From the NCBI GenBank assembly GCA_946626345.1, contig CAMOUB010000006.1:1-36355 (forward strand): a stretch of DNA of 36,355 bases, in the 5' to 3' direction. The notes beneath the pieces were generated by a model. The model saw only the letters and a program-made list of their open reading frames with translations. It did no database searches and was not told where the DNA came from. The DNA is from an uncultured Caryophanales bacterium (GTDB taxonomy: Bacteria > Bacillota_I > Bacilli_A > Acholeplasmatales > Anaeroplasmataceae). A program made the translations under genes and the position numbers. Of the stretch, positions 1 to 2,286 are shown one piece after another (the first letter of the stretch is position 1; every line of letters begins with the position of its first letter).

Positions 1-50
1 TACAAGATGGGATTTGCACCCACTAGATTATGTGCACCGAACTAGCGCAC
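1..50 (-). mobile_element. Putative 5' end of a group II intron (partial, runs off the window)
   Basis: Read on the minus strand, the sequence from base 50 begins GTGCG, the consensus 5' start of bacterial group II introns. It continues into folded sequence: a TGGG/CCCA stem (bases 8-11 with 19-22) around a TGCAAAT loop, and paired CTAG blocks (23-26 with 42-45). It enters the restriction-methylase frame just after the GEYYTP motif, where homologues continue without a break, so the junction looks like exon/intron (after the first base of codon 351). Only 50 bases are visible, so the reverse transcriptase, domains II-VI and the 3' exon cannot be seen. The alternative is another insertion that happens to start with GTGCG. 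Confidence 0.45.
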
Positions 51-1101
51 CACCCGCCAAATATAAAGGAGTATAGTATTCTCCCATAGCATGTCTTACC
101 CAAAAAGGAAAAATATTTTCATATAGCTTAATAAATAGTAAATTCTCACCCTTTGTATCTATTGTTGTTACAATGGCAATTTTATCATAGAAATAATTAA
201 AATCTTCCTCACTAAATTCATTTAAATACCAAGAAAAAAAATCACCATCAATTAAATTTAAAATATTATGATTTCGATAAAATTGGTTATTCTCAATTTC
301 TTTAAAAAATGTTTTCAAAAAAGTTGGCTTAGATTGGTGGGATGAGGTCTTGTCTAAAATAATTTTATGTAACATAAGCTTAAGAACAATTGAATAATAT
401 GTTTGTATTGAAAATAAAGCTTTATATTGCTTTTCTATATTGTCAATTTCTACATCAAATAATTCTTGATAAAACTTAATAACCTGTGCTTGCTTTTCAG
501 TATCCAAACTATCATGAGCTTCAGATAAATTGAATAGTTTTTGCCATTCATCATAAAATAACTTTGTTCTTTCATTTGTTGAATTTATGGCTAATTCAAA
601 TATCCTTTTTATTATTTCCTTGTTTGAATCGACGCCTAAATATCCATTAATATTTAAGTCTGTAATAACCAATTTTTCTTTATTAGAAATTACTTCACAA
701 ATATATCTAAATTGTTCTTCATTAATTTCACCGGAAAGTTTTTCATTTAAAACAAAATCATTTTCTTCAGAGGAATATGCATAAATTTCCAACTGTTTTG
801 CATTAGTTAAAATACCCCATGCATATGTTCCTAGGTCTTCTAAATAATCTTTAAGCTGTTTTCTATTTTCATCACACAAATTTACGTCTGGTGCTTTATA
901 TTCAATAACAAAATTTTCATATCTTGAATCAATATAAGTATGGACTGACGTAGCAACTTCGTTTCTAAATAAAATATTAAAATTATATTTTTCCAATAAA
1001 TAATCTTTTATGTCATTATTTAAAGCTTGTCGAACATCTTCTTCTGAAACATGATCGTTTCTAGATATTCTCAATTTTAAATTTTTCAAATTATTAAGCA
1101 T
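28..1101 (-). CDS. Type IIG-like restriction-modification protein, N-terminal part, interrupted
   Basis: The first about 130 residues look like a PD-(D/E)xK nuclease domain: D58 is followed by an E67-Y-K69 core strand in 'FVIEYKAP', as in restriction nucleases. A helical linker (about 150-330) follows. Then comes 'VRHAMGEYYTP' (GEYYTP at 340-345), the sequence that opens the N6-adenine methylase domain of type IIG and related enzymes. The frame stops 12 codons later, before SAM motif I and the NPPY motif, which cannot be encoded here. From base 50 leftward the sequence resembles a group II intron, so the last residues are probably not native. The start ATG at 1101 has a GGGAAGGAA ribosome site. 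If the intron splices, the enzyme could be restored; otherwise this is a broken gene with the nuclease domain intact. The family assignment rests on motifs only. Confidence 0.7.
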   Translation of the reverse strand: MLNNLKNLKLRISRNDHVSEEDVRQALNNDIKDYLLEKYNFNILFRNEVATSVHTYIDSRYENFVIEYKAPDVNLCDENRKQLKDYLEDLGTYAWGILTNAKQLEIYAYSSEENDFVLNEKLSGEINEEQFRYICEVISNKEKLVITDLNINGYLGVDSNKEIIKRIFELAINSTNERTKLFYDEWQKLFNLSEAHDSLDTEKQAQVIKFYQELFDVEIDNIEKQYKALFSIQTYYSIVLKLMLHKIILDKTSSHQSKPTFLKTFFKEIENNQFYRNHNILNLIDGDFFSWYLNEFSEEDFNYFYDKIAIVTTIDTKGENLLFIKLYENIFPFWVRHAMGEYYTPLYLAGGALVRCT

Positions 1102-1302: not shown

Positions 1303-1356
1303 AATTTGCCTTCATACTTGATAAATCTTAGATTTTATGGCTTTATATGTAGAAAT

Positions 1357-1361
1357 GGAGG
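1357..1361 (+). promoter_or_regulatory. Ribosome binding site that fixes the recombinase start at TTG 1370
   Basis: A perfect GGAGG lies 8 bases before TTG at 1370. The upstream in-frame ATGs at 1337 and 1355 have no comparable site, and the family sequence (IYAYIRVST) begins at the TTG. Confidence 0.75.
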
Positions 1362-1369
1362 TGAGTAAA

Positions 1370-1969
1370 TTGATTTATGCATATATACGTGTTTCAACTA
1401 AACAGCAAAAGATTGATAGGCAATATGAAGAAATAAAAGTTCTTAATATTGATGACAAACATATCTATGTAGATAAAGAATCGGGTAAGGATTTTGATAG
1501 GACTAACTATAAGAAACTTATTAAGAAATTAAAAAAAGATGACCTACTAATTGTTAAATCAATAGATCGTCTTGGTAGAAATTATCATATGATACTTGAG
1601 GAATGGGCTCATATAACTAAAACTATAGGTGCTGATATAAAGGTTTTAGATATGCCACTTCTAGATACTAGAATTGAAGGTAAGAACTTAGTTGGTAAGT
1701 TTATAAGTGATATTGTTCTTCAAGTATTATCGTTTGTTGCCGAAAACGAAAGAAATAATATTAGAGAACGTCAGATGGAAGGAATTAGAATTGCAAAAGA
1801 AAAAGGCGTTAAGTTTGGTAGACCAAAAGTAGTCACTCCACCTAACACCAATGAATTATTAGATAAATATATTAATCATGAAATAACAAATACTGAAGCC
1901 GCTGCTATTATAGGAGTATCTAGAGGCACATTTTTTAGATTAGTTAAAGAGAGAAAATGCAACACCTAG
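1370..1969 (+). CDS. Serine recombinase (resolvase/invertase family)
   Basis: This is a 199-residue site-specific recombinase that cuts and rejoins DNA through a covalent serine intermediate. The catalytic serine is S9 in 'YIRVSTKQQ'. The conserved arginine motif is 'SIDRLGRN', the long dimer helix carries 'ENERNNIRERQMEG', and a GRP hinge leads to a C-terminal helix-turn-helix (TNTEAAAIIGVSRGTFFRLV). All family elements and the normal length are present, so it looks intact. The chosen start is TTG 1370, with GGAGG 8 bases upstream. The frame can extend to ATG 1337, which would add 11 residues not expected for the family. Inverted repeats lie on both sides and four phased motifs lie at the 3' end, so its own sites are probably local. 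Whether it resolves, inverts or merely marks a decayed element cannot be decided from the sequence. Confidence 0.88.
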   Translation: MIYAYIRVSTKQQKIDRQYEEIKVLNIDDKHIYVDKESGKDFDRTNYKKLIKKLKKDDLLIVKSIDRLGRNYHMILEEWAHITKTIGADIKVLDMPLLDTRIEGKNLVGKFISDIVLQVLSFVAENERNNIRERQMEGIRIAKEKGVKFGRPKVVTPPNTNELLDKYINHEITNTEAAAIIGVSRGTFFRLVKERKCNT

Positions 1970-2198: not shown

Positions 2199-2286
2199 TG
2201 GTGCTCCAGGCGGGACTCGAACCCGCACGATATCACTACCAGTGGATTTTGAGTCCACCGCGTATACCAATTTCGCCACTAGAGCA
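2199..2286 (-). tRNA. tRNA-Leu (anticodon CAA)
   Basis: This is an 88-base class II tRNA with an encoded CCA end. The acceptor TGCTCTA pairs with TGGAGCA (one G-U). The D-arm includes GTGGCGAAATTGGTA. The anticodon stem GTGGA/TCCAC holds the loop CTCAAAA, giving anticodon CAA, which reads UUG. A long variable arm follows, and the T-arm is GCGGG-TTCGAGT-CCCGC. The long variable arm and the sequence around the anticodon match bacterial Leu tRNAs. It has its own promoter and terminator and appears to be a single-gene unit. Confidence 0.96.

What the first reader, a model, noticed from the sequence alone, without database searches (positions are those of the whole stretch)
1..60. Group II intron-like sequence inserted exactly at the methylase GEYYTP motif of a restriction enzyme
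Seen: the R-M frame is normal up to GEYYTPLYLA, then (minus strand, base 50) the sequence becomes GTGCG followed by short paired elements, and the frame stops. Known: GUGYG is the 5' consensus of bacterial group II introns, which can splice out of coding genes. Inference: the methylase half may exist as a second exon left of the window, making R-M activity depend on splicing. A restriction gene split between its nuclease and methylase halves by a ribozyme would be an unusual arrangement.
Basis: partly seen in the sequence, partly recalled or inferred. Interest (0 to 1): 0.6.

Follow-up and report, generated by a model that had tools for sequence, protein, structure and literature searches.

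The report
Self-splicing intron splits restriction-enzyme gene
A mobile self-splicing intron interrupts a bacterial restriction-enzyme gene, the missing second half was found on another contig in exact reading frame, and sister copies of the intron sit inside the ribosome-binding sites of many other genes, which points to an unreported kind of target preference.

Summary
The finding holds up. The window is one whole contig (C6) of a fragmented 1.43 Mb draft genome; base 1 is a contig end. Minus-strand bases 50-1 are the first 50 nt of a group II intron. The same start ends contig C62 and runs on in C38, where Rfam scores it as group-II-D1D4-6 (113 bits, cut-off 49). The 3' exon is on contig C3: 54 nt of intron 3' end, then the methylase half with motif I (DPTCGSG) and NPPW. 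The interior of this copy is unassembled, so splicing is inferred; a full relative in a sister species has the RT ORF, domain V and domain VI with its bulged A. The larger result concerns the other copies. At 10 of 11 three-prime junctions an ORF of 102-532 aa starts 5-9 nt downstream; 5' exons mostly end GGTG or GAGG/GGAGG, usually after a TATAAT-like box. These introns interrupt Shine-Dalgarno sequences; the restriction-gene site GGGTG|AT is a coding look-alike. A 2015 review lists three target specificities, and not this one.

The parts
1..50 (-). First 50 nt of a group II intron (5' end GTGCG at window 50-46; read 50 to 1); the rest lies beyond the contig end
   Evidence: Identical to C38:12120-12169 and C62:1-48; C38 copy scores 113 bits for RF02005
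51..1101 (-). Exon 1 of the type IIG restriction-modification gene: nuclease half up to methylase motif X GEYYTP, 350 codons plus one base
   Evidence: PADLOC REase_MTase_IIG 103 bits for the 350 aa
51..56 (-). IBS1 position, CGGGTG; with the 3' exon start AT it spells the Shine-Dalgarno-like GGGTGAT
   Evidence: pairs 4 of 6 with EBS1 CACCGT of the C38 copy (worked by hand); the own EBS1 is not assembled
28..30 (-). In-intron stop codon that ends the unspliced reading frame, giving a 357-aa fragment

Best explanation
A mobile bacterial group II intron (Rfam type D1D4-6) has inserted into a type IIG restriction-modification gene between methylase motifs X (GEYYTP) and I (DPTCGSG). The gene is now exon 1 (window 51-1101, minus), intron, exon 2 (end of contig C3). 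Splicing, probably helped by a maturase of the same intron family, would join GGT G|AT and restore a 944-aa enzyme. Unspliced RNA gives only a 357-aa nuclease-half fragment, so restriction and methylation would both depend on splicing. The assembly broke here because the intron is repeated in the genome. The site fits exon pairing by the intron's EBS1 loop: this family has EBS1 loops that resemble the anti-Shine-Dalgarno sequence and sits mainly in ribosome-binding sites just after promoters; GCG GGT GAT is a coding look-alike. Shown: intron identity, both junctions, in-phase exons, Shine-Dalgarno location of sister copies. Inferred: splicing in vivo, dependence of enzyme activity on it, mode of targeting.
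For: RF02005 hit on the same element. 3' exon on C3 preceded by 54 nt that match the 3' end of the full intron in G019:C26 at 95%. Joined exons in phase: 944 aa, 634/942 identical to the uninterrupted L039 protein with one gap. Domain V/VI with the bulged A 7 nt from the 3' end in the full relative; RT/maturase there. Shine-Dalgarno location of other copies: 10 of 11 three-prime flanks open an ORF of at least 102 aa 5-9 nt downstream; P about 3e-7 against GGTG|A and GAGG|T background sites. Own EBS1-IBS1 pairing 31 of 36 against 22.3 for swapped pairs.
Against: The interior of this copy is not assembled and no RT lies in the held, 76%-complete genome. C6 and C3 are joined by homology, not by a contiguous read. 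IBS1 here pairs only 4 of 6 with the one family A EBS1 known from this genome. The RT frame of the G019 copy is interrupted before domain X. No RNA data.
Confidence: 0.88

Rival explanations
1. The intron is there but cannot splice (truncated, or lacking a maturase in trans), so the restriction gene is simply disrupted.
For: No RT in the held genome; the related C48 copy is about 725 nt long without an RT ORF; the G019 RT frame is interrupted.
Against: Both ends are intact and exact, exon 2 has an open frame of 593 aa with conserved motifs, and the sister copies interrupt apparently needed leaders. The genome is incomplete and repeats are the part that fails to assemble.
Confidence: 0.2
2. Misassembly or a chimeric contig end, with no intron in this gene.
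For: The feature is at a contig end of a draft metagenome-type assembly.
Against: Exon 1 and exon 2 of one gene each end exactly at the matching intron boundary on two contigs and complement each other to the base. Other copies end their contigs 48-55 nt into the repeat in the same way, the pattern expected of a repeat break.
Confidence: 0.03
3. For the wider claim: the Shine-Dalgarno excess is only the by-product of a G-rich exon-binding sequence in an AT-rich genome plus selection against coding insertions, not a distinct targeting mode.
For: 22 of 41 GGAGG sites in 90 kb of this genome already lie in front of an ORF start; against that rate the 6 of 6 of family B has P 0.024 only.
Against: For GGTG|A only 16 of 141 sites do, yet 4 of 5 such junctions are Shine-Dalgarno sites. 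A perfect TATAAT precedes 8 of 17 insertions, against 18% of background Shine-Dalgarno sites and 5% of random sites.
Confidence: 0.4

Closest known systems
Bacterial group II introns of Rfam type RF02005 (e.g. introns with LtrA maturase on Peribacillus and Arthrobacter plasmids)
   Same: Same domain I model, same 3' end style (...CTACTCGAC), RT about 49% identical
   Different: The four Bacillaceae-type copies read are not at Shine-Dalgarno sites; this lineage is
Group IIC (class C) introns, which insert after terminators or at attC sites (PMC4424553)
   Same: A targeted, intergenic way of spreading with a short exon-binding sequence
   Different: Here the insertion point is inside the ribosome-binding site, about 30-40 nt past any terminator hairpin at C38 and C62; only the G020:C134 copy directly follows a hairpin
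C. difficile c-di-GMP group I intron riboswitch (PMC3984707)
   Same: Splicing in a 5' leader decides whether a ribosome-binding site stands in front of the start codon
   Different: Group I, single domesticated locus, ligand-controlled; here a multi-copy mobile group II intron, no ligand known
C. tetani C.te.I1 group II intron (PMC3919590)
   Same: Group II intron without its own maturase ORF (as in the C48 copy) that splices in vivo between protein genes
   Different: C.te.I1 lies after a stop codon and shuffles surface-layer exons
Type IIG (Eco57I-like) restriction-modification enzymes
   Same: Eco57I Pfam domain and PADLOC REase_MTase_IIG match, VIEYK, DPTCGSG and NPPW motifs
   Different: Gene split by a group II intron; no such case found in the library searched

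Membership tests
Group II intron | 5' boundary GUGYG | tested here: met
   GTGCG at window 50-46, minus
Group II intron | Domain I matching a group II model | tested here: met
   113 bits, gathering 49, on the C38 copy that shares the window's 50 nt; only 50 nt of this copy are assembled
Group II intron | Domain V with catalytic AGC | tested here: inconclusive
   Present in the full relative L027 and in C35 and C48; this copy's domain V is unassembled, C3 holds only the last 54 nt
Group II intron | Domain VI with a bulged A near the 3' end and 3' end AY | tested here: met
   C3 ends ...GGTCTACTCGAC; the bulged A 7 nt from the end is predicted in L027 and C35, and the same UACUCGAC stands in C3
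Group II intron | Intron-encoded RT/maturase in domain IV | tested here: inconclusive
   In the G019 relative (TIGR04416, 332 bits), frame interrupted; none in the held genome
Group II intron | Exact exon ligation restores the gene | tested here: met
   On the DNA level: 944 aa, 67% identity to L039 with one gap
Group II intron | Splicing as RNA | not testable with these tools
   No RNA data
Type IIG restriction-modification enzyme | Nuclease and methylase in one chain with motifs X, I and IV | tested here: met
   VIEYK 65, GEYYTP 340, DPTCGSG 370, NPPW 549 in the joined protein; PADLOC type IIG hits on both exons
Type IIG restriction-modification enzyme | Cleavage and methylation activity | not testable with these tools
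   Needs expression
Group IIC intron | Insertion directly after a terminator hairpin or at attC | tested here: not met
   The restriction site is coding; of 17 distinct 5' flanks only G020:C134 directly follows a hairpin

The most novel reading that the evidence does not exclude
A lineage of group II introns in this bacterial genus has acquired a target specificity for Shine-Dalgarno sequences close behind promoters, with EBS1 loops that resemble the 16S anti-Shine-Dalgarno sequence, so that translation of many host genes depends on splicing; the restriction gene is an off-target coding copy at a look-alike sequence.
Probability: 0.55. Interest if true: 0.75.

Novelty: new variant of a known kind. 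Interest (0 to 1): 0.62.

Why it matters
A review (PMC4424553) names three target specificities of bacterial group II introns: homing sites, terminators and attC sites. Insertion inside ribosome-binding sites would be a fourth, and would make splicing a precondition for translating diverse host genes. [quoted passage not shown] The restriction gene is a clean test case: in a one-chain enzyme, both restriction and self-protection would depend on a ribozyme.

Tried and rejected
The window alone gives no intron hit in Rfam; domain I had to be read on C38. RT search of the own genome by PF00078: none. RT search in viral contigs: none. Relatives of the restriction gene in 100 related genomes: only a weak, stop-ridden 50-residue match, so no empty site in a near species. 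The first pattern search used a wrong anchor (GTTAGC) and missed family A. A terminator-targeting (class C) reading was considered because C38 and C62 follow terminator-like hairpins, but the insertions lie about 30-40 nt past them, beside promoter-like boxes. An ordinary insertion sequence was rejected: the ends are intron ends and the exons join without duplicated bases. A fold of the 54 nt on C3 alone is not informative, since the 5' strand of domain VI is missing. Three family searches failed on a wrong frame and were repeated in the right one.

Full report
Observation. The window is the whole of contig C6 in a 114-contig, 76%-complete draft genome, so base 1 is a contig end and not a gene boundary. 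On the minus strand an ORF runs from 1101 to a stop at 28-30. It reads as a restriction-methylase protein as far as GEYYTPLYLAG, after which GTGCGCTAGTTCGGTGCAC... begins at base 50.

The 50 bases are the start of a repeated element. The same bases end contig C62 and occur near the end of C38, where the element goes on to 285 nt. That copy scores 113 bits (gathering score 49, E 2.6e-32) for Rfam RF02005, group-II-D1D4-6. A full relative, 94% identical over the first 285 nt, lies in another species of the genus (G019:C26, L027:2494-4365, 1872 nt). It has a group II RT/maturase (TIGR04416, 332 bits over a cut-off of 300), domain V, and a domain VI that folds with a single bulged A exactly 7 nt from the 3' end.

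The missing half of the gene. A search with the C-terminal half of a Ligilactobacillus homologue found the end of the own contig C3. The C3 end reads 54 nt of intron 3' end...GGTCTACTCGAC, then ATGTTGTTGAAAATACA.... Joined in a script, exon 1 (1051 nt, 350 codons plus one base) and exon 2 give 944 residues: GEYYTPLYLAG-DVVENTLKIAKTDGNIKLLDPTCGSG. An uninterrupted 947-residue protein from another draft genome (L039, found) is 67% identical over 942 columns with one gap. The joint lies between methylase motifs X (residue 340) and I (residue 370); NPPW is at 549 and the nuclease-type VIEYK at 65. Exons 1 and 2 both match PADLOC's type IIG family, and exon 2 matches Pfam Eco57I.

How it would work. 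In unspliced RNA the ribosome runs a few codons past exon 1 and stops, leaving a nuclease half without methylase or target recognition. Because the enzyme is one chain, restriction and protection would be lost or restored together, which may be why the site is tolerated (inference). Splicing itself is not shown. The interior of this copy is unassembled and no RT is in the held genome.

Where the sister copies sit. Seventeen distinct 5' flanks and eleven distinct 3' flanks could be read. Family A (GTGCGCTAG) 5' exons end in GGTG, with one exception (TTGTTG); its 3' exons start with A. Family B (GTGCGCCAG, about 75% identical) 5' exons mostly end in GAGG or GGAGG; its 3' exons start with T. In 10 of 11 three-prime flanks an ATG or GTG 5-9 nt downstream opens an ORF of 102-532 aa; the exception is the restriction gene. 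By eye the host genes are diverse, including a MATE-type exporter, a DHH-type phosphoesterase and a pseudouridine synthase (not run through family searches). In 90 kb of this genome only 16 of 141 GGTG|A sites and 18 of 72 GAGG|T sites precede such a start; the combined P is about 3e-7. Against the stricter GGAGG rate (22 of 41) the family B part alone is only P 0.024. A perfect TATAAT stands 10-19 nt upstream in 8 of 17 insertions, against 18% of background Shine-Dalgarno sites and 5% of random sites. The simplest reading is that these introns interrupt Shine-Dalgarno sequences just downstream of promoters and that splicing puts GGAGG|T or GGTG|AT back together.

Mechanism of choice. The loop at about intron nt 197-204 (EBS1 by its place in the Rfam model) reads CACCGT or CACCAA in family A and, in family B, CCTCAA, CCTTCT or CATCCT. 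It pairs with each copy's own last six exon bases in 31 of 36 positions, against 22.3 on average for swapped pairs; 0.3% of permutations reach that. The register was chosen by eye and the copies are related, so this is support and not proof. CACC and CCTC are also pieces of the anti-Shine-Dalgarno sequence (general knowledge). In the restriction gene the codons GCG GGT GAT happen to spell GGGTGAT, so this coding insertion looks like an off-target event at a look-alike.

Known and new. Group II introns and type IIG enzymes are known kinds. Library searches found no restriction gene split by a group II intron and none of the titles and abstracts listed describes a group II intron placed in a Shine-Dalgarno sequence. 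A 2015 review lists homing sites, terminators and attC sites as the known specificities (PMC4424553). The nearest functional parallel is the C. difficile group I intron whose splicing positions a ribosome-binding site (PMC3984707). The library lacks most subscription journals, so absence there is weak evidence. More distant RF02005 introns from Bacillaceae-type plasmids are not at Shine-Dalgarno sites, so the preference appears to belong to this lineage.

Caveats. Most 3' and 5' flanks are on different contigs and cannot be paired, except C6 with C3 and the two full copies in G019. Selection against coding insertions may explain part of the Shine-Dalgarno excess. The RT of the G019 copy is interrupted before domain X, so it may be decaying or use a coupled second frame.

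Noticed in passing
L025:1843-2567 (G000:C48:9842-10566): Complete related group II intron of about 725 nt with domains I, V and VI but no RT ORF, so it would need a maturase in trans. Further family B ends at C78 (5') and C18, C20, C86 (3').
   Followed up: partly
L027:2968-4257 (G019:C26): RT ORF of the full family A intron stops at an ATGA overlap before domain X, whose sequence continues in another frame: a frameshift, an assembly error or a coupled two-protein maturase.
   Followed up: no
L028, minus strand about 2520-2563 (G020:C134): One family A copy sits directly after a perfect hairpin (CAACAAATGT...ACATTTGTTG) and not in a Shine-Dalgarno sequence, recalling class C targeting.
   Followed up: no
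L087, L088, L089, L090 (Arthrobacter and Peribacillus plasmids): The four related RF02005 introns follow similar 5' flanks of the type AACTATAGGGGCAGG; an uninterrupted stretch AACTATAGGGGCAGGATAGTT, a small palindrome, stands downstream in L088. Perhaps a repeated extragenic target.
   Followed up: no
window 1337-1969 (+) and 2202-2285 (-): A serine resolvase-type recombinase and a tRNA gene stand right beside the restriction gene, which has no clear relative in 100 related genomes: probably a mobile island at a tRNA.
   Followed up: no
L043:3749-3827 (G000:C35): Match to the c-di-GMP-I-UAU riboswitch below the curated cut-off (55.8 bits, gathering 65.9), on the contig that also holds an intron 3' end.
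   Followed up: no
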